From: Porphyromonas sp.
GTDB lineage: Bacteria > Bacteroidota > Bacteroidia > Bacteroidales > Porphyromonadaceae
Length of the DNA stretch: 64,000 nt
Assembly: GCA_022772085.1 (NCBI GenBank)
Contig: JALFBN010000010.1
Coordinates: 62,001-126,000, forward strand
Direction: 5' to 3'
Every line of letters starts with the position of its first letter. The first letter of the stretch is position 1. The position numbers and the translations under genes are program-made. Positions 48,866 to 56,426 of this stretch are shown here, piece after piece. Under the pieces are notes generated by a model. That model ran no database searches. It worked only from the letters and a program-made list of their open reading frames with translations, and was not told where the DNA came from.

Positions 48866-48932
48866 CGCAACTTATAAGAATATTTGTTGATAGAAGAACT
48901 AAGAAAACGCTAACAATTTGAATAGTAAAATT

Positions 48933-50150
48933 ATGAAGGTAAAGTACTTATTGCTCTCTCTTATGGGAGCTATGGCACTCTCAGCTAGTGCCCAGACTAC
49001 GGCACCAGAAGATCAAAACCAGCTTCCTGCTCGCAAGACAGCTTTTGATCGTTCTGCGGGTCATTGGTTTATCACCTTGCAGGGCGGTGTTAGTGCACAA
49101 TTTCTAGAGGGAAATCAGGCACAGGATTTCGTGAAGCGTCTTCACGTTATGCCAACACTCTCCATTGGTAAGTGGCATAACCCCTATTTTGCAACTCGTT
49201 TGCAACTTATGGCAGGTCCTACGCCTACGTATTATAAGACGGCTGCTAATGATGTTGTCACGCTTAATACTGCGATGGCTGGTGCTCATTTCGATTTTAT
49301 GTTTGATGTAGTGAACTACTACTCAAAGTACAATGCTAAGCGCGTGTTCCACCTCATTCCTTTCGCTGGGGTTGGTTACAACTTTAAGTACTATAATGAC
49401 TTCAAAGACTTCGGTAGCTACTTCTCTACGAGTCAGCCCTATCGTCACTCTTTGGCTGCTAACATTGGTGCTCAGATGTCTTTCCGTTTAGGTAAGCGTG
49501 TGGACTTCGTTCTCGAGGCTCAAGCTGTGTACAATAACCTCAATATCGTTAAGAAGGACTTTGACTACAAGGATGCTAGTGCAGCCTATATGCCAAAGGG
49601 TGCTAATCCTGATGGATACCCTTACAATGGTCTTCTCGGTGTAGTTACTGCCGGTCTTAACTTCAACCTTGGTAAGGTAGAGTGGGAGGTTATTACCCCT
49701 ATGGATATGGATCTTATCAACGATCTTAATGGTCAAATCAACAGTCTTCGCGCAGAAAATGCAGAACTCGCTAAGCGTCCTGTTTCTTGCCCCGAATGCC
49801 CTGAAGTAGTTGCTCCCGAAACTAAGGTCGTAGCCGGTCTCAGCGAAAAGGCTCTTACTTTCAAGTTTGACTCTGACAAGCTTACCCCCAACCAAGAAAT
49901 CGTTCTTTACGAAATTGCCAAGTTTGTAAAGGATAACAACCAAGCTATCTCTGTAATTGGTTACGCTGATGTCACGGGTAATGCAGACTACAACCTCGCA
50001 CTCTCTGAACGTCGTGCTAAGGCTGTTGCTGAAATTCTTATGTCTGAGTATGGTGTTCCTTCTGACAAGATCAATGTAGAATGGCAGGGTGAAACTGAGC
50101 AGTTCGATACTCGTGCTTGGAACCGCGTAGTTATCGTTCGCTCTAAGTAA
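48933..50150 (+). CDS. OmpA-like outer-membrane protein 1 (Pgm7/Pgm6-type)
   Basis: A 405-residue outer-membrane protein: signal peptide (MKVKYLLLSLMGAMALSASA), N-terminal beta-barrel (about 25-260), a short helical linker with LRAENAELAKRPVSCPECPE, and an OmpA-type peptidoglycan-binding domain (FKFDSDKLTPNQEIVLYEIA, YADVTGNADYNLALSERRAK). In Porphyromonas gingivalis such paired proteins form disulfide-linked trimers that stabilise the envelope; the CPEC cysteines here could do the same. The second gene follows after 35 bases. Confidence 0.88.
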   Translation: MKVKYLLLSLMGAMALSASAQTTAPEDQNQLPARKTAFDRSAGHWFITLQGGVSAQFLEGNQAQDFVKRLHVMPTLSIGKWHNPYFATRLQLMAGPTPTYYKTAANDVVTLNTAMAGAHFDFMFDVVNYYSKYNAKRVFHLIPFAGVGYNFKYYNDFKDFGSYFSTSQPYRHSLAANIGAQMSFRLGKRVDFVLEAQAVYNNLNIVKKDFDYKDASAAYMPKGANPDGYPYNGLLGVVTAGLNFNLGKVEWEVITPMDMDLINDLNGQINSLRAENAELAKRPVSCPECPEVVAPETKVVAGLSEKALTFKFDSDKLTPNQEIVLYEIAKFVKDNNQAISVIGYADVTGNADYNLALSERRAKAVAEILMSEYGVPSDKINVEWQGETEQFDTRAWNRVVIVRSK

Positions 50151-50185
50151 TAGAAACACTAACCATAAAAATAGAAGATTTAGAT

Positions 50186-51385
50186 ATGAAAGCTAAAGTA
50201 TTAATGCTCGCCCTTATGGGTAGCTTCGCACTTTCTTTTGGTGCTCAAGCTCAGCAGGAAGTAGCAACTCCCAATACATCCGGTCACAAGACGATTTTTA
50301 ATCGCGACAAAGGTTGTGATCATTGGTTCCTTGAAGTGCAAGGTGGTGTAGGTCTCCTTCCTTTCGGAGAAGCTAACAACAAGGCTGCTCTCATGGATCG
50401 TATTTACCCCGTTGTCCAACTTGGTGTAGGTAAGTGGTATGAACCCTGGTTCGCTACTCGTGTACAAGTCGAGGGATGGAATATGAAGGGTTTTGCTCTT
50501 GATGCAGCCGGTGCTAATCATGCTTATAATAACCTTTTCGGTGCTGCTCACATGGACTTTATGTTCGACGTGGTTAATTACTTTGCTAAATACAACGCTA
50601 AGCGTGTGTTCCACTTCGTGCCTTACGTAGGTCTTGGTGCTGGTTATAAGCATCACTCCACTGTTGGTGCTGGTTTCACAGATCCCTTCACAGGTAAGGC
50701 TGTTGATGGTGCAACAAAGAATGACTTCGGAGGCGTTGTTGATGCTGGTGTTATCTTCAAGTTCCGTCTAGGTCGTCGTGTAGATCTTAACCTCGAAGCT
50801 CAAATGTTGGCAACGAAGACTAACATGATTGGTACTTCTTGGAAGAGTCAAGGTGCTGATATCATGGCTTTTGCTACTGCGGGTCTTGGGTTCAACTTGG
50901 GTAAACCTGAATGGGATGTTCTCATTCCTATGGATTGGGCTCTCGTTAATGATCTCAATGGTCAAATCAATAACCTTCGTGCAGAAAATGCAGAACTCGC
51001 TAAGCGTCCTGCTTCTTGCCCCGAGTGCCCCGAACCTACCGTAGATGGTGGTGAGGTAGTTAAGACTGTTGTAAACAACGTTGTTTACTTCCGCCTCGGT
51101 AGTGCTAAGGTTGATCAAAACCAGTATATCAACATCTACAATACAGCTAAGTATGCTCTCGAAAATAATAGCAAGATCTATGTGGTAGGTTATGCTGACG
51201 AAGCTACTGGTTCTGCAGACTTCAATATGGCCCTCTCTGAACGTCGTGCTAAGGCTGTTGCTAAGATTCTTGCTGAAAAGTATGGTGTTGCTGAAGATAT
51301 GATTGAAGTTGACTTCAAGGGTTCTACCGTACAGCCCTACGAAACCAACGAGTGGAATCGTATCGTTATCATGACTGCTGAATAA
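50186..51385 (+). CDS. OmpA-like outer-membrane protein 2 (Pgm6/Pgm7-type)
   Basis: A 399-residue paralogue of the preceding gene with the same order: signal peptide (MKAKVLMLALMGSFALSFGA), beta-barrel, linker NLRAENAELAKRPASCPECP and OmpA domain (YFRLGSAKVDQNQYINIYNT, ADFNMALSERRAKAVAKILA). The linker and the LSERRAKAV segment are nearly identical to gene 1 even at the DNA level, while the barrels diverge. It is probably co-transcribed with gene 1 and assembles with it in the outer membrane. Confidence 0.88.
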   Translation: MKAKVLMLALMGSFALSFGAQAQQEVATPNTSGHKTIFNRDKGCDHWFLEVQGGVGLLPFGEANNKAALMDRIYPVVQLGVGKWYEPWFATRVQVEGWNMKGFALDAAGANHAYNNLFGAAHMDFMFDVVNYFAKYNAKRVFHFVPYVGLGAGYKHHSTVGAGFTDPFTGKAVDGATKNDFGGVVDAGVIFKFRLGRRVDLNLEAQMLATKTNMIGTSWKSQGADIMAFATAGLGFNLGKPEWDVLIPMDWALVNDLNGQINNLRAENAELAKRPASCPECPEPTVDGGEVVKTVVNNVVYFRLGSAKVDQNQYINIYNTAKYALENNSKIYVVGYADEATGSADFNMALSERRAKAVAKILAEKYGVAEDMIEVDFKGSTVQPYETNEWNRIVIMTAE

Positions 51386-51426: not shown

Positions 51427-51463
51427 AGGGAGATGTCTGATATGGGCATCTCCCTTTCTTTTT
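51427..51463 (+). terminator. strong terminator of the OmpA operon
   Basis: AGGGAGATG (51427-51435) pairs perfectly with CATCTCCCT (51447-51455) and is followed by TTCTTTTTAAT. A small GACTCT/AGAGTC hairpin lies just before it (51404-51418). Confidence 0.85.
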
Positions 51464-51851
51464 AATCTTGGTAGGGAATACTGACCATATCTTGTCCATG
51501 AAAATAAGGGAATCCTTGTTTCCCTAGAAATCAAATAGACAGTCTCTTGCTGGAAACTCAACGGAAGATGATCTCCGTAATGTTTGATAGATTTTGTTGT
51601 GACTAGATCTCTGATGATCTCTTTGATGTAGCAAGATCAGCGAAATGAGCAAAAAGTTCTATCTTTGCAACGAGTAAAAAGAAGAAAGAATGCCTAAAAT
51701 ATAAGAGATAAAAGGGCCGATTCTTTTTTCGATTGATAAATGGGGATGATTGATAATGGTGCTCTGATACTATCCTAGAGTAGAGTGAGTAAGGGAATCC
51801 ATTAGATCATTCCAGTTTCATGTTGGAGAATAATTTAAATAGGCAATCATT
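51464..51851 (+). other. intergenic region and promoter before the GTPase cluster
   Basis: A 388-base non-coding stretch. A perfect -7 box TATCTTTG at 51660-51667, with no convincing -33, would give the cluster a leader of about 180 bases. A GGGAA/TTCCC inverted repeat lies near 51,515. No small ORF or RNA gene was recognised. Confidence 0.45.
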
Positions 51852-52916
51852 ATGAATTCACAAGCCCTACTAAGGCTCTTCTCGCTGATCGCTTTTGTCG
51901 CATTTGCATCAGTTAGTTGTTGGGCTACAGCTGAGTCTTTACATCTACTATTACCCAATTGGCCATCCATTCTTTGCTGGATTGTTACCATTGGTTTTTA
52001 CGTAGTTGCCTCTTATGGAACGAAGCTGGTCGTCGATAGTTTAAATCAATCTGTATATGTTGAAAAGCGCGGTGTAAAACTCGTTGGAGGATTTTTACTT
52101 GCCTTGTTCTTTTGGATTGTTTGTAGTTTCCCGACCAATACACATACATTTTTTTACCGTAGTGCCATTGTGGATGTAGTTGTGGACGATATTGCTACTA
52201 CCCGTACCTATTTGCAAAATCTAGCCAGTGATGCCAAGGGTGAAGAGACGGTCAAGAAAACCCAAGATAGCATTGGCGCAATTGTAAATGCTCAACTCAT
52301 TGCTTTGGAAGGGGAGATTGATAATTTGGCGAACCCCGGTTTTGGAGATCGTGCCAAGGAACATCTTTCCAAAATAGCCCAAACACTGCAGGTTGCTCAG
52401 ATCCCGATGTTGTCCCATACGGGTACAAATTCCAAACAGATCAAGAGTTTGAAAGATCAATATCGGAAGACAATCACCGAAATGTTGGAGAAACGTAAGG
52501 AGGAGGTTGCTCGTCAGATGACTAATGTACAGGTGGTAAAATACAAACCTGAAGCTGAAGAGCGTTTGCAGGGGTTGGAGCAGATGGCTGCTAAAATCAC
52601 TGATATGGCTAATGCTAAAGAGGTAAATGAAGACTTGATCAACCAAGCCGATATGGAACTAAAGAAGTCCTATGCTACAATCAAGAATTACCAACAATTC
52701 GTTGAACTAAAAACTGTCGATCAAGAGGTATACCTCTCTGAGCGTCCTGTAACCAAGACCTCTCGTATGTTGAGTGTATTTGATGTTTGGAAGGATTTCT
52801 TGGAAGGCAAGTACGCAGGTCGAGGGATTATCTTTTGGGTGATACTCTCTCTACTTGTGGATATTGCTGCGTTTATTTTCTTTGATCTTGCATTCAAGCG
52901 TCGGGAACAACTTTAA
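51852..52916 (+). CDS. uncharacterised four-helix membrane protein with large helical domain (cluster gene A)
   Basis: Not recognised. 354 residues. Three N-terminal membrane helices (about 7-27, 37-57, 78-95), then about 225 mostly helical residues (105-320, Lys/Glu/Gln-rich), then a fourth helix (about 325-346, IIFWVILSLLVDIAAFIFFD) and a basic tail KRREQL. By the positive-inside rule the C-terminus is cytosolic and the long helical domain periplasmic. It is the first of four closely spaced genes, 12 bases before the GTPase gene, so a shared membrane complex is likely. It could be a sensor or anchor; no enzyme motif is seen. Confidence 0.8.
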   Translation: MNSQALLRLFSLIAFVAFASVSCWATAESLHLLLPNWPSILCWIVTIGFYVVASYGTKLVVDSLNQSVYVEKRGVKLVGGFLLALFFWIVCSFPTNTHTFFYRSAIVDVVVDDIATTRTYLQNLASDAKGEETVKKTQDSIGAIVNAQLIALEGEIDNLANPGFGDRAKEHLSKIAQTLQVAQIPMLSHTGTNSKQIKSLKDQYRKTITEMLEKRKEEVARQMTNVQVVKYKPEAEERLQGLEQMAAKITDMANAKEVNEDLINQADMELKKSYATIKNYQQFVELKTVDQEVYLSERPVTKTSRMLSVFDVWKDFLEGKYAGRGIIFWVILSLLVDIAAFIFFDLAFKRREQL

Positions 52917-52928
52917 ATCTTACTTTTT

Positions 52929-53867
52929 ATGGCTAATATCAATTTTGACAATAATGATGAGTTGATCTCCCAAATCCCTGCAATGGAAAATCACGTGGAG
53001 GCAAAACCGATGGACGTCTCCGGTTTTTTGCAGAAGGAAGACCCTCGTGATATAGGACTTAATGAGGTAGAATTGAATGATCCGAACAAGATCAATGTGA
53101 CCATCGCAGATACATCCGCACCTCTCTTGATGCTTTTTGGCCCCCCCTCTTGCGGTAAGACGATGACACTGATTCGCTTAACACGTTTCTTGCAAAAGTC
53201 GGGATACACGGTTGCTCCAATTCCTAGTTTTCGTCCTAGCTACGATAAAAATTATCGAGAATTGTGCGAAAACTTCAATGCGATGATCAATAGTTCGGAT
53301 GCTGCCAAGGCTACGAGCAATGTGAGCTTTATGCTTGTAGAGGTATTGAAGGAGGGGCGTCGGGTTTGTCAGATACTGGAGGCTCCCGGAGAATATTACT
53401 TTAATCCTGATTTACCCAAAGCTGATTTTCCTGCCTATTTCAATAAGATCATCAATATGACGAATCGTAAGATTTGGCTCTTTTTCCTCGAACCGATTTG
53501 GCGAGAAGATGTGGATCGTCGCAATTATGTGACACGTATTGAAATGGTAAAGAGTCGGAGTCGTGCACACGATAAGGCGATTTTCGTTTTTAATAAGATT
53601 GATAAGACAAACTATGTGATCGCTCCTGGTCAAGTACATAAGCAACAAGCCCTCAAGCAGGTGAGCTTTCTTTATCCCAATCTTTTCGTGCCTTTCCGCA
53701 ACACTAATCCTATAACCTCTTTTATCAGACCCTATAATTTTGATTTCGCTGTTATGCACACGGGGGACTATGTCTCTGCTGCAGATGGTACCTTGACCTT
53801 TCAAGAGGGACCTGAGGAGTATGTGTCGGAATTGTGGCATATCGTTCGTCGTCATATTAGAGGTTGA
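52929..53867 (+). CDS. uncharacterised P-loop GTPase (cluster gene B)
   Basis: A 312-residue cytosolic protein. The P-loop GPPSCGKT is at 71-78, a candidate switch II EAPGEYYF at 151-158 (Glu in place of the usual Asp of DxxG) and the guanine-specificity motif NKID at 222-225 (preceded by KAIFVF). These point to a Ras-like/TRAFAC GTPase, though not one of the known housekeeping families. About 65 N-terminal residues are acidic and probably disordered. The C-terminus (EYVSELWHIVRRHIRG) is helical. It sits between membrane protein A and two single-pass proteins. Confidence 0.82.
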   Translation: MANINFDNNDELISQIPAMENHVEAKPMDVSGFLQKEDPRDIGLNEVELNDPNKINVTIADTSAPLLMLFGPPSCGKTMTLIRLTRFLQKSGYTVAPIPSFRPSYDKNYRELCENFNAMINSSDAAKATSNVSFMLVEVLKEGRRVCQILEAPGEYYFNPDLPKADFPAYFNKIINMTNRKIWLFFLEPIWREDVDRRNYVTRIEMVKSRSRAHDKAIFVFNKIDKTNYVIAPGQVHKQQALKQVSFLYPNLFVPFRNTNPITSFIRPYNFDFAVMHTGDYVSAADGTLTFQEGPEEYVSELWHIVRRHIRG

Positions 53868-53878
53868 TTGATACGATT

Positions 53879-55090
53879 ATGCAGTTCGAAATCTTTTTAC
53901 ATGGCACTCCACAAGGCCAGCAAATCTTGGGTAAGTCGTCGGATGCATTTGCTCGTTTCGCTTCGACTTTTTATACGGTAGATACGGCTGATATCACGGA
54001 AAAGTTACGCATGGATCAGCTTGTGACAAGTCGAGGATCCGTGCTAATTTATTCTCTTGTTTGGGCTCGGCAGATTGTGGGCGATGATGGGCGAGAAGGG
54101 GGCTATGTGGCACTCTCTCTGCAACTGGATCTCATGGCTCGCAGTACATATCAAATCTATAATTTACTGAAGGCGTTGTTTCTAACTAAAGTCTTGGGGC
54201 GTATTGTCCGCGTAAAAGAGGGGGATAAAATTCAATTTGCTACATCCAAACTAACCTCTTTTGGAGTGGATTATATTGCGGAGTTAGAGGGATTCGTTGG
54301 GGCATATATTCGAGATAATATCGGAGCCTCGGGCTTTGCTCCCATACCTCAAGTGGGGCAATCGGGAAAAGTGCATTCGGGGGGTGTTCGTAAAGTAAAT
54401 CGATTCGATTTTTCAGAGAATCTCCTATTACAGACACTTGCCAATGGCGATACCTTGGACGTTTCAGATGAATATCCCTCTCAGCTGACAGAGCAAAAGA
54501 TCAGGGACTTGAGTCGTCAGCTTGAGGAAACTAAACGATCCTATTCAATGCAACTTGCTGAATTACAAGAGCAACATAGGGAGACTTTAACAGCATGGAA
54601 GCAACAATGGAACGCTAAGTTAGAGCAATCTTCAGAGCAGTTACAGCAACAAGCCCAAAAGAGTAAGGTGCAATTGGATCAACTTGCAATGGAACGGAAT
54701 CAGTTGCGTACGGAGTTGGAGCATTTGCAGATACGGGTAAAAACGGCAGACTTACAGAGTTCGCTACTCAAGCAGGAATCTAGTTTAAAGGCTTTGGCAG
54801 AGTCGATTTTTCAACTTTTTGGTTTGTCAAAAGGAGGACTCTCCCCTTCTCAAGAAGACTCTTCAACGTCCGACAAAGTGTTGATTTCGCACCGCTCTTG
54901 GTTCCCTATTATACATCTTATACTCACCCTTATATGTGCTTTGTTGCTCACAGTGGTTTTGATCTTTTTTCGTTCTGATAAGGGGGATAATACGCCTCCC
55001 ATTGTCACTATTCAACATGATACGGTCTACATAGAGAGTCCAAGGGTCGATTCTACAGCTCTTGAAGTACCAGGAATATCCAAATATTGA
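53879..55090 (+). CDS. uncharacterised GTPase-cluster protein with coiled coil and C-terminal anchor (cluster gene C)
   Basis: A 403-residue protein: globular N-terminal domain (1-195, FEIFLHGTPQGQQILGKSSD, then GGYVALSLQLD), a coiled coil (about 201-305, rich in Gln/Glu/Lys), one membrane helix (341-364, FPIIHLILTLICALLLTVVL) and a short tail of about 39 residues. The N-domain should be cytosolic. Its opening is faintly like GAP1-N domains of bacterial GTPase-associated conflict systems, an impression not tested. ATG 53879 follows the GTPase stop by 11 bases. Its N-domain resembles that of gene D. Confidence 0.75.
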   Translation: MQFEIFLHGTPQGQQILGKSSDAFARFASTFYTVDTADITEKLRMDQLVTSRGSVLIYSLVWARQIVGDDGREGGYVALSLQLDLMARSTYQIYNLLKALFLTKVLGRIVRVKEGDKIQFATSKLTSFGVDYIAELEGFVGAYIRDNIGASGFAPIPQVGQSGKVHSGGVRKVNRFDFSENLLLQTLANGDTLDVSDEYPSQLTEQKIRDLSRQLEETKRSYSMQLAELQEQHRETLTAWKQQWNAKLEQSSEQLQQQAQKSKVQLDQLAMERNQLRTELEHLQIRVKTADLQSSLLKQESSLKALAESIFQLFGLSKGGLSPSQEDSSTSDKVLISHRSWFPIIHLILTLICALLLTVVLIFFRSDKGDNTPPIVTIQHDTVYIESPRVDSTALEVPGISKY

Positions 55091-55094
55091 GTTA

Positions 55095-55133
55095 TAGATA
55101 GAGAGGTTACTTTAACTCCTCTATCTATTTTTT
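55095..55133 (+). terminator. terminator-like hairpin between cluster genes C and D
   Basis: TAGATAGAGAGG (55095-55106) pairs with CCTCTATCTA (55118-55127) with a two-base bulge, followed by TTTTTT (55128-55133). The ATG of gene D is at 55140. It looks like an intrinsic terminator inside the operon and could set the ratio of D to A-C. Confidence 0.7.
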
Positions 55134-55139
55134 AGCCTG

Positions 55140-56426
55140 ATGAATACTACCATTTATCTATTTTCGTCGACGTTGTCCTATGAGCAATATCCCAATGATT
55201 CGACCTCTCGACTGTTTCAGGGGCTTTTGTCTCGAGCAGAGGCTCCTGAGCAACTCTTGATTCATCGGGAGGGTGATCTCGTTTATTACGTTTATATTCG
55301 AGCGTTGGGGGAAGAGCCTAAAGGCTTTTGGGGGGTCTCTTTTATCCTCAATGGAGAACATCTTATAGGGGCTTTTGAGAAATTGATGAAGTTTTGTGAG
55401 CAACAATTACGCTATGTGGCTCTTCAGGGAGATTTGCTTCAGCTGGATGATTATGGGAACATCCGGCGAACTAATAGCACTTTTCATGATCAATTGCCAT
55501 TTATCGAATCCTTGGTGCATAAGATCCGTAAACAGTTCTCGGGGCTCGATTTGCCACTCGCACTTCTTCCTCCCACCAATTATGGTATAGATCGACGGAG
55601 CTTTAGTCGATTATCTGTTTCGGAACAGGATGTGGATATTTTAAGGGCTGTTGAGAGTCATGCTATTGTTGCATTGCTGCAAGCAAAAGACTATGAAGAT
55701 CCGCTTCTCAGACGTTATGGAGAGCAACTTAGGTGTTTGGCGATAGAACGGGACGACTTAAAGAAGAGATGCGAAGAGCTACAATCGTCCTATTGTGCCC
55801 TCAATCGACAAAAAAAACAGTACAAAAAAGTAATGTTTCTCTCCCTCCTAACTGCTTTCATTTTGTGTCTTAGTTCTGTTGGTTTTTTTGTCTTTAGATA
55901 TCATTTACGTTCGCTCCGGCAGGATGCTTTGGAGCAGTCTTCTCAAAATAAAAAACTCACGGCACAAAACGAACGTTTGGAACAGAGCAATCAGGAGTTG
56001 TCGTCATCCTACGCACAGGAGCAGCGCAAGCATGAAGAGGCTCGTTCGTTACTTGATGGATTGACCCAAGGAATGCCTCTTGTTGTTCGGGGGATAGAGG
56101 TGGCTATGACGAGTCAAACCTCGGAAGTTCCAACCTCTTTCAGTAGCAAGGCTCATTTGGATCGTTACCTTTGGGTTGCTATTGAGTATAAAGAGATAGA
56201 GGAAGCTTTGGTTGATTTACAGGTCGAGGTGTATCGCAGAGAGGATAACATCCGGGTGGCCTCCATCCCACTAAGTGTACAGACACTGATGCTTGGCGAG
56301 GGGAGTCGTAAGGTTGTAACTCCGGCTATTTCGGGAGATTGGATCGAGGGTGAATACGAGATAGAGGTACGTAGTGGGGAAGTGGTACTCTCTTCCAAGC
56401 GTGTTTATATAGATTCCTATCGATAA
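55140..56426 (+). CDS. uncharacterised GTPase-cluster protein with single membrane helix and periplasmic domain (cluster gene D)
   Basis: A 428-residue protein. N-terminal domain (1-190) with the same pattern as gene C (HREGDLVYYVYIRAL, GFWGVSFIL, YVALQGDLLQLDDYGNI), a short coiled coil (about 195-228), a membrane helix (230-253, VMFLSLLTAFILCLSSVGFF), a second coiled coil (about 256-307) and a C-terminal beta-rich domain (about 312-428, LWVAIEYKEIEEALVDLQVE). The C-terminal part should be periplasmic, so D bridges the GTPase side and the envelope. Function unknown. Confidence 0.75.
   Translation: MNTTIYLFSSTLSYEQYPNDSTSRLFQGLLSRAEAPEQLLIHREGDLVYYVYIRALGEEPKGFWGVSFILNGEHLIGAFEKLMKFCEQQLRYVALQGDLLQLDDYGNIRRTNSTFHDQLPFIESLVHKIRKQFSGLDLPLALLPPTNYGIDRRSFSRLSVSEQDVDILRAVESHAIVALLQAKDYEDPLLRRYGEQLRCLAIERDDLKKRCEELQSSYCALNRQKKQYKKVMFLSLLTAFILCLSSVGFFVFRYHLRSLRQDALEQSSQNKKLTAQNERLEQSNQELSSSYAQEQRKHEEARSLLDGLTQGMPLVVRGIEVAMTSQTSEVPTSFSSKAHLDRYLWVAIEYKEIEEALVDLQVEVYRREDNIRVASIPLSVQTLMLGEGSRKVVTPAISGDWIEGEYEIEVRSGEVVLSSKRVYIDSYR

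What the first reader, a model, noticed from the sequence alone, without database searches (positions are those of the whole stretch)
51852..56426. Four-gene membrane/GTPase cluster, candidate undescribed system
Seen: four same-strand genes with gaps of 12, 11 and 49 bases encode a four-helix protein with a long helical domain, a P-loop GTPase (GPPSCGKT, EAPG, NKID) and two single-pass coiled-coil proteins. None matches a family I can name. Known: GTPase modules linked to membrane and coiled-coil partners occur in bacterial trafficking, polarity and conflict systems. Inference: the GTPase docks on C and D at the inner membrane, and the periplasmic parts of A and D sense or act on the envelope.
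Basis: partly seen in the sequence, partly recalled or inferred. Interest (0 to 1): 0.82.

Follow-up and report, generated by a model that had tools for sequence, protein, structure and literature searches.

The report
Mobile membrane GTPase operon, undescribed
Some gut- and mouth-type bacteria carry an undescribed, sporadically distributed set of four or five genes that appears to build a molecular switch across the cell membrane: a GTP-binding protein, two related membrane-anchored partners, a four-helix membrane protein and, often, a protein-cutting lipoprotein.

Summary
The four genes are real and co-linear at the stated places (gaps 12, 11, 49 bases; C starts at ATG 53879). The order A-B-C-D on one strand recurs in all 11 genomes or elements in which B was confirmed (one split over two contigs). 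Eight of the 11 carry a fifth gene between C and D, a retropepsin-like aspartic-protease lipoprotein, which this genome lacks. C and D are paralogues: their N-terminal ~190 residues are homologous (hhalign E 5e-12). A confident AlphaFold model of that domain (pLDDT 88) has the secondary-structure order of longin domains, known GTPase platforms. B has G1-G4 motifs of a TRAFAC-type GTPase in 10 of 10. Strong matches of A and of B fall in the same 4 of 393 Bacteroidales genomes. The operon is absent beside the same OmpA pair in 5 of 5 Porphyromonas relatives examined, and looks like cargo of a mobilizable element in one viral-collection contig. No Pfam or NCBIfam cut-off is reached by A-D, and no PADLOC model matches well. 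Nearest published idea: GTPase-centred conflict systems (DO-GTPase/GAP1), but membership is not shown. Best reading: a transmembrane GTPase switch of an accessory, probably conflict-type system, output unknown. Fold comparison was unavailable.

The parts
51852..52916 (+). Gene A: four-TM protein; ~220-residue helical part between TM3 and TM4, predicted extracytoplasmic
   Evidence: no Pfam/NCBIfam cut-off reached, no PADLOC match
52152..52811 (+). Helical extracytoplasmic part of A (residues 101-320), placement inferred
   Evidence: hydropathy
52929..53867 (+). Gene B: soluble P-loop GTPase, TRAFAC-type element order
53139..53162 (+). G1 / Walker A, GPPSCGKT (residues 71-78 of B)
   Evidence: P-loop in 10 of 10 full B proteins
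53376..53393 (+). G3, LEAPGE (residues 150-155 of B)
   Evidence: QILE[A/S]PGE in 10 of 10
53592..53603 (+). G4, NKID (residues 222-225 of B)
   Evidence: NK[I/V/A]D in 10 of 10
53879..55090 (+). Gene C: N-domain, coiled coil, one TM (residues 344-362), short extracytoplasmic tail
53879..54478 (+). N-domain of C (residues 1-200), longin-like order of elements in the AlphaFold model
55140..56426 (+). Gene D: N-domain, short coil, one TM (residues 233-251), coiled coil and extracytoplasmic part
55140..55709 (+). N-domain of D (residues 1-190), homologous to that of C
   Evidence: E 5e-12, 185 columns; with controls
51427..51455 (+). Terminator-like hairpin after the OmpA pair: A-D are probably their own transcription unit
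   Evidence: pattern match only; 6 found in the region against 4.7 expected
51660..51667 (+). TATCTTTG, a match to the Bacteroidota -7 promoter element TAnnTTTG (motif recalled)
   Evidence: 30 such words on the + strand of 64 kb, so weak

Best explanation
A-D encode a GTPase switch assembled at and across the inner membrane. Shown by computation: B is a P-loop GTPase; C and D are paralogous single-pass membrane proteins whose N-domains share ancestry; A is a four-TM protein that accompanied B in every confirmed case; the operon is accessory and, in one contig, lies among mobility genes. Inferred: the N-domains of C and D are cytosolic and form a (hetero)dimeric longin-type platform that binds B and controls its GTP cycle, as roadblock/longin dimers do elsewhere. 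A signal met by the extracytoplasmic parts of C, D and A, in most relatives perhaps set or ended by the protease lipoprotein, is passed through the TM and coiled-coil segments to B; B-GTP then changes the state of A, the most conserved membrane part and the likeliest output (a pore or membrane-remodelling element). Sporadic spread, mobile cargo and fast divergence of C and D make a conflict role (against phage, conjugative element or rival) likelier than housekeeping.
For: Order A-B-C-D in 11 of 11 confirmed B loci. The same four genomes hold strong matches of A and B, 4 of 393. C/D N-domain homology E 5e-12, 6e-13 with 11 sequences each; reversed control E 0.18, 60 column shuffles reach at most score 18.9 against 86.3; other controls E 0.29 and 0.51. 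AlphaFold of C's N-domain, pLDDT 87.7, pTM 0.86, order b-b-a-b-b-b-a then a further helix. Longin/roadblock dimers often bind small GTPases (PMC10933270, passages read). B: all four G motifs in 10 of 10; profile matches to 12 housekeeping-type GTPases (E 9e-8) and 20 DO-GTPases (E 2e-8). D positive before its TM in 9 of 11. Protease in 8 of 11: DTG/DSG in all eight and a cysteine closing the N-terminal hydrophobic stretch; PF13975 above its cut-off in both of two scanned. Accessory: 3 of 60 relatives besides this genome have B; OmpA pair kept without the operon in 5 of 5 examined; L037 has MobC-like, integrase and partial HsdS genes beside it. dN of C and D 0.47 and 0.48 against 0.10 and 0.14 for A and B.
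Against: No complex was modelled and no fold search was possible, so 'longin-like' rests on element order; a PAS/profilin-type fold is not excluded. No PDB sequence hit for the N-domain (best E 2.2). No effector domain was recognised in A-D. Neighbours differ between loci; of ten neighbour proteins scanned with PADLOC four had no match, and no enrichment test was made. B was not found in the phage or plasmid records at E 1e-5. Fast evolution of C and D has other possible causes. The operon's G+C is close to that of the window (0.433 against 0.455), so recent import here is not shown.
Confidence: 0.45

Rival explanations
1. Divergent third branch of the published GTPase-centred conflict systems: B is a DO-GTPase and the C/D N-domain is a diverged GAP1-N.
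For: B's G3 word EAPGE-aromatic resembles DAPGEWF, present in 6 of 10 DO-GTPase2 sequences compared. The C profile against GAP1-N1 aligns co-linearly over 78 columns, E 0.067, score reached by 1 of 60 column shuffles; the C+D profile over 44 columns, E 0.053, reached by 0 of 60. The GTPase gene lies just upstream of its partner, as typical in Kaur et al..
Against: GAP1-N1 match not significant: with a longer GAP1 profile E 0.11 (C), 0.44 (D), 0.11 (C+D); D alone E 0.27, its reversed control 0.29. B against DO2 alone E 8e-5, DO1 alone 5e-4, a 7-sequence housekeeping profile 4e-4; against 20 DO-GTPases 1.6e-8 and against 12 housekeeping-type GTPases 8.7e-8, with 7-sequence subsamples overlapping. 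No Pfam hit to these families; no second GTPase and no GASH hit in the operon.
Confidence: 0.25
2. A housekeeping-like envelope or trafficking module: B, C and D recruit or position envelope machinery (as MglA/MglB do for polarity), with A as a structural partner and the protease for turnover.
For: Longin/roadblock proteins are known mainly from membrane traffic and polarity. D has an FtsL-like TM/coiled coil, NCBIfam E 6e-7 but below cut-off.
Against: Present in only 4 of 61 related genomes including this one and strongly in 4 of 393 of the order: not core. Mobile context in L037.
Confidence: 0.2
3. A function of mobile elements themselves, such as exclusion of a competing element or help in transfer, riding on integrative elements.
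For: L037: cargo beside MobC-like, integrase and HsdS genes.
Against: I recognised no mobility gene by eye next to the window and P. endodontalis copies in the stretches read; B not found in 72,556 plasmid records.
Confidence: 0.12
4. The N-domain of C and D is a PAS- or profilin-type domain that senses a small ligand; B is regulated otherwise.
For: The same strand order can occur in PAS-type folds (recalled); no fold search was possible.
Against: [quoted passage not shown]
Confidence: 0.15

Closest known systems
DO-GTPase / GAP1 (N1, N2) GTPase-centred conflict systems (Kaur et al. 2020, PMC7159879; passages read)
   Same: A TRAFAC-type GTPase with a glutamate-containing G3 region, next to a gene for a dedicated partner; membrane and variable extracytoplasmic domains in the N2 type; sporadic
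   Different: One GTPase, no GASH or GAP1 hit in Pfam, no recognised effector; GAP1-N relation only suggestive; adds a four-TM protein and often a retropepsin-like lipoprotein
MglA/MglB and longin/roadblock GTPase platforms (PMC10933270; passages read)
   Same: GTPase with a companion of longin/roadblock-like element order
   Different: Here two paralogous companions are membrane-anchored through coiled coil and TM; B is larger with an unusual G3; no sequence match found
Longin SNAREs, e.g. the VAMP7 type (recalled)
   Same: N-terminal longin-like domain, coiled coil, C-terminal anchor
   Different: Bacterial, extracytoplasmic domain after the TM, no SNARE motif sought or identified; resemblance of layout only
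Retropepsin-like bacterial proteases (ApRick protease, PDB 5c9b)
   Same: Fifth gene of the relatives: PF13975/PF13650 match, D-T/S-G-C/A motif, PDB E 0.017
   Different: A lipoprotein within a GTPase operon; absent from this window

Membership tests
DO-GTPase/GAP1 conflict system | GTPase matches PF19993 or PF19975 | tested here: not met
   Neither model is among the hits with E up to 1 for the window's B or up to 0.1 for B. luti's B; no PF19993 match at E 0.001 in the own genome
DO-GTPase/GAP1 conflict system | B nearer to DO-GTPases than to other GTPases | tested here: inconclusive
   hhalign E 1.6e-8 (20 DO) against 8.7e-8 (12 housekeeping-type); subsamples overlap
DO-GTPase/GAP1 conflict system | GAP1-N domain in the partner | tested here: inconclusive
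   No Pfam hit to GAP1-N1 or N2 for the window's C and D nor among the families listed for six C proteins; profile E 0.05-0.44 against GAP1-N1; GAP1-N2 compared by Pfam only
DO-GTPase/GAP1 conflict system | GASH protein (N1 type) and paired GTPases | tested here: not met
   No GASH hit and no second GTPase in the operon
Longin/roadblock GTPase platform | Secondary-structure order b-b-a-b-b-b-a without N-terminal helix (longin form) | tested here: met
   Element order in a model of pLDDT 88
Longin/roadblock GTPase platform | Five strands in one antiparallel sheet in longin order | not testable with these tools
   No coordinates given and fold search switched off
Longin/roadblock GTPase platform | Sequence match to a known longin/roadblock protein | tested here: not met
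   No such hit up to E 10 in the PDB nor among Pfam hits of C and D; longins diverge beyond such tests (recalled)
Longin/roadblock GTPase platform | Dimer that binds the GTPase | not testable with these tools
   No complex prediction offered
TRAFAC GTPase | G1-G4 motifs | tested here: met
   10 of 10 full B proteins; G3 has Glu in place of the usual first Asp
TRAFAC GTPase | Antiparallel strand before the Walker-B strand | tested here: inconclusive
   Two consecutive strands E136-141 and E144-151 in a model of pLDDT 75.7; direction not read
Known anti-phage system | PADLOC model for A-D | tested here: not met
   Only weak P-loop or coiled-coil matches, best E 0.0038

The most novel reading that the evidence does not exclude
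A new kind of bacterial transmembrane signalling device: a mobile operon in which two paralogous longin-like, coiled-coil, membrane-anchored proteins (SNARE-like in layout) hold a TRAFAC GTPase at the inner membrane, linked to a periplasmic retropepsin and a four-TM output, working as an immune or inter-element conflict system.
Probability: 0.3. Interest if true: 0.82.

Novelty: new variant of a known kind. Interest (0 to 1): 0.6.

Why it matters
Roadblock proteins are described as sporadic in bacteria (PMC10933270, passage read). A membrane-anchored longin-like pair encoded in one operon with its GTPase would give a compact genetic handle on how such switches work and evolve, and a candidate for an unrecognised conflict system in Bacteroidales, an order rich in gut and oral residents. 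Paralogy of C and D, the always-present A, the optional protease and the empty neighbouring sites make direct tests easy to design.

Tried and rejected
DO-GTPase membership looked strong at first (B against DO1+DO2 E 1.6e-8), but 12 housekeeping-type GTPases from the same genome gave E 8.7e-8, so I dropped the specific claim. Those 12 are from 17 MMR_HSR1 hits; five were left out (L063 picked up a wrong frame, L071, L074 and L075 gave no usable P-loop, L077 looks like an ATPase). In single-sequence comparisons these controls and DO-GTPases also overlap. The DO set is 10 DO2 and 10 DO1 proteins from L038 and nine of twelve plasmid stretches; L041, L044 and L047 had no annotation and were not used. 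GAP1-N1 homology (nine sequences) stays suggestive only. GAP1-N2: one Bacteroidota match in 296 genomes, too few for a profile. A tree of B was unresolved (1 of 7 inner branches supported), so I make no transfer claim from it. A pattern scan of viral contigs with A found nothing, although L037 holds an A gene, so that scan is insensitive. The C-D similarity is invisible to pairwise BLAST (E 0.76). Weak order- and phylum-level hits of B (E 9e-6 to 1e-3: 4 of 393 and 3 of 296) cover only part of the profile; I did not inspect them and do not count them. The weak hit of A in G004 (E 1.8e-4) is likewise not counted. Rz-spanin and FtsL matches of D fall on the TM/coiled coil and are weak or below cut-off.

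Paper searches for a description of this operon (one search returned none) listed none whose title or abstract start names it; two searches were for background. Beyond listings I read only passages of PMC7159879 and PMC10933270; most subscription papers and preprints are not held.
Full report
Setting. The window lies in a 2.06-Mb genome (G000) whose B protein is 81% identical to one in a Porphyromonas genome (G007); that contig has the length of the P. endodontalis ATCC 35406 contig that holds L005, so I take them as one genome. A-D follow a thioredoxin-like gene and two OmpA-type genes (named by eye), behind a terminator-like hairpin, and precede a gene that looks like gltX on the other strand.

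Observation. A-D reach no cut-off in Pfam or NCBIfam, have only weak PADLOC matches and no strong PHROG match.

Relatives. B was confirmed in 11 genomes or elements: the window, P. endodontalis (L005), Bacteroides luti (L006), two Bacteroidaceae/Bacteroides metagenome bins (L007; L008+L009), two further genomes of the window's genus, G006 and G002 (L010, L011), three further genomes of the order (L023-L025) and one IMG/VR contig (L037). In all 11, A, B, C and D lie in this order on one strand; in the L008/L009 bin the contig break falls inside B, and its A reads as a shortened frame. In the other 10 loci the gaps run from a 25-base overlap to 49 bases. Eight of the 11 have a further gene between C and D (in L037 also one more small gene): a protein of 172-197 residues with a cysteine closing its N-terminal hydrophobic stretch and a DTG/DSG motif. 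Two were scanned and matched PF13975 and PF13650 above cut-off; the nearest solved structure by sequence is the retropepsin-like ApRick protease, E 0.017. The window, L005 and L010 lack it between C and D, and profile A10 finds no copy at E 0.001 in those three genomes, one of which (G006) is 87% complete.

Distribution. B: 4 of 61 relatives, own genome included. In 393 genomes of the order 8 reach E 0.001, but only 4 strongly. In 296 of the phylum 4 reach it, only the own genome strongly. A: 5 of 393, four strongly, and these are the same four genomes as for B. No B in 72,556 plasmid or 50,697 phage records at E 1e-5.

Accessory nature. Of 16 genomes of the genus searched for the thioredoxin-like flank gene, I fetched five of those without B, chosen for strong flank matches (G003, G005, G009, G022, G025). 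All five keep that gene and the two OmpA genes in order, no ORF of 100 residues or more in the 10-11.5 kb stretches matches A-D, and none of the five has B anywhere. L037 has the operon among MobC-like (PF19514), phage-integrase, partial HsdS and helicase genes. In G307 it neighbours a HEC-01-type AAA/DUF4276 pair (PADLOC E 7e-131 and 2e-74); about 3 kb from the operon in G186 lies a Fic protein matching PDC-S04; in L009 an ATPase matching PDC-S27 is next to D. Of the ten neighbour proteins scanned with PADLOC, four had no match. This is a hint, not an enrichment test.

B. P-loop, a threonine before strand 2, QILE[A/S]PGE and NK[I/V/A]D are in 10 of 10 full B proteins. The model (pLDDT 75.7, residues 1-41 below 50) has the element order of a small GTPase. 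Profile comparison supports a GTPase domain over 142-183 columns but does not choose between DO-GTPases and housekeeping-type GTPases.

C and D. hhalign aligns C 1-198 with D 1-190 at E 5e-12. With 11 sequences each it gives score 86.3, against 15.3 for the reversed profile and at most 18.9 in 60 column shuffles. The AlphaFold model of the window's C N-domain, made with 12 C and D sequences, has mean pLDDT 87.7 and pTM 0.86. Its elements are E3-9 E15-17 H22-33 E41-50 E53-62 E77-83 H90-105, a small hairpin, H130-148, and a final strand-helix-strand. That is the longin order: five strands, one helix between strands 2 and 3, helices after strand 5, no N-terminal helix (compare PMC10933270, passages). 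After the N-domain come a coiled coil, a TM and an extracytoplasmic part that varies: short in the window's C, BACON domains in G307's D, almost nothing after the TM in G002's D.

A. Four TM segments in the window's protein; invariant residues include the run PTNTHT at the end of TM3 in 9 of 9 aligned. The helical part between TM3 and TM4 has no usable match.

Evolution. Against P. endodontalis dN is 0.10 (A), 0.14 (B), 0.47 (C), 0.48 (D), and 0.10 for the neighbouring OmpA2. dS is 2.1 for B and C and not computable for A and D, so ratios are unsafe. A and B are constrained while C and D move fast, as expected for partners of a variable input.

Mechanism. Shown: co-occurrence, gene order, GTPase motifs, C/D paralogy, topology by hydropathy, accessory spread. 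Inferred in steps: (1) C and D present paired longin-like domains in the cytosol; (2) B binds them and its GTP cycle is set there; (3) extracytoplasmic parts of C, D and A receive the input, with the protease trimming it where present; (4) A is the output. Step 1 is likely, 2 plausible, 3 and 4 guesses. A conflict role is favoured over housekeeping by the sporadic distribution and the one mobile context.

Known or new. The nearest published systems are the DO-GTPase/GAP1 conflict systems (PMC7159879, passages read). Shared: a TRAFAC-type GTPase with a dedicated partner, and membrane links. Not met: GASH, paired GTPases, Pfam models. Undecided: GAP1-N homology. I therefore file it as a new variant of the broad kind 'GTPase-centred accessory system', not as a member of the DO-GTPase family.

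Noticed in passing
G146:C3:22208-22615: A second retropepsin-like protease match inside a 742-residue open frame, outside the operon.
   Followed up: no
L037:8853-10865: C of the mobile-element copy carries cysteine pairs resembling zinc ribbons between N-domain and TM (DZR_2 E 0.009, below cut-off), and an extra small gene precedes the protease.
   Followed up: partly
L024:2836-4658: Two further same-strand genes follow D in G186: one with a hydrophobic N-terminus and a BACON-domain protein; they may extend the system.
   Followed up: partly
L025:1241-3087: A HEC-01-type AAA + DUF4276 pair lies directly downstream of the operon in G307.
   Followed up: partly
L038:3497-9685: GASH / DO-GTPase2 / DO-GTPase1 / GAP1-N1 genes with a phosphorylase-type domain on the GAP1 protein, in a genome of the same class, used as yardstick.
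   Followed up: partly
window 48918-51385: Tandem OmpA-type genes after a thioredoxin-like gene, a block conserved in all five relatives examined.
   Followed up: partly
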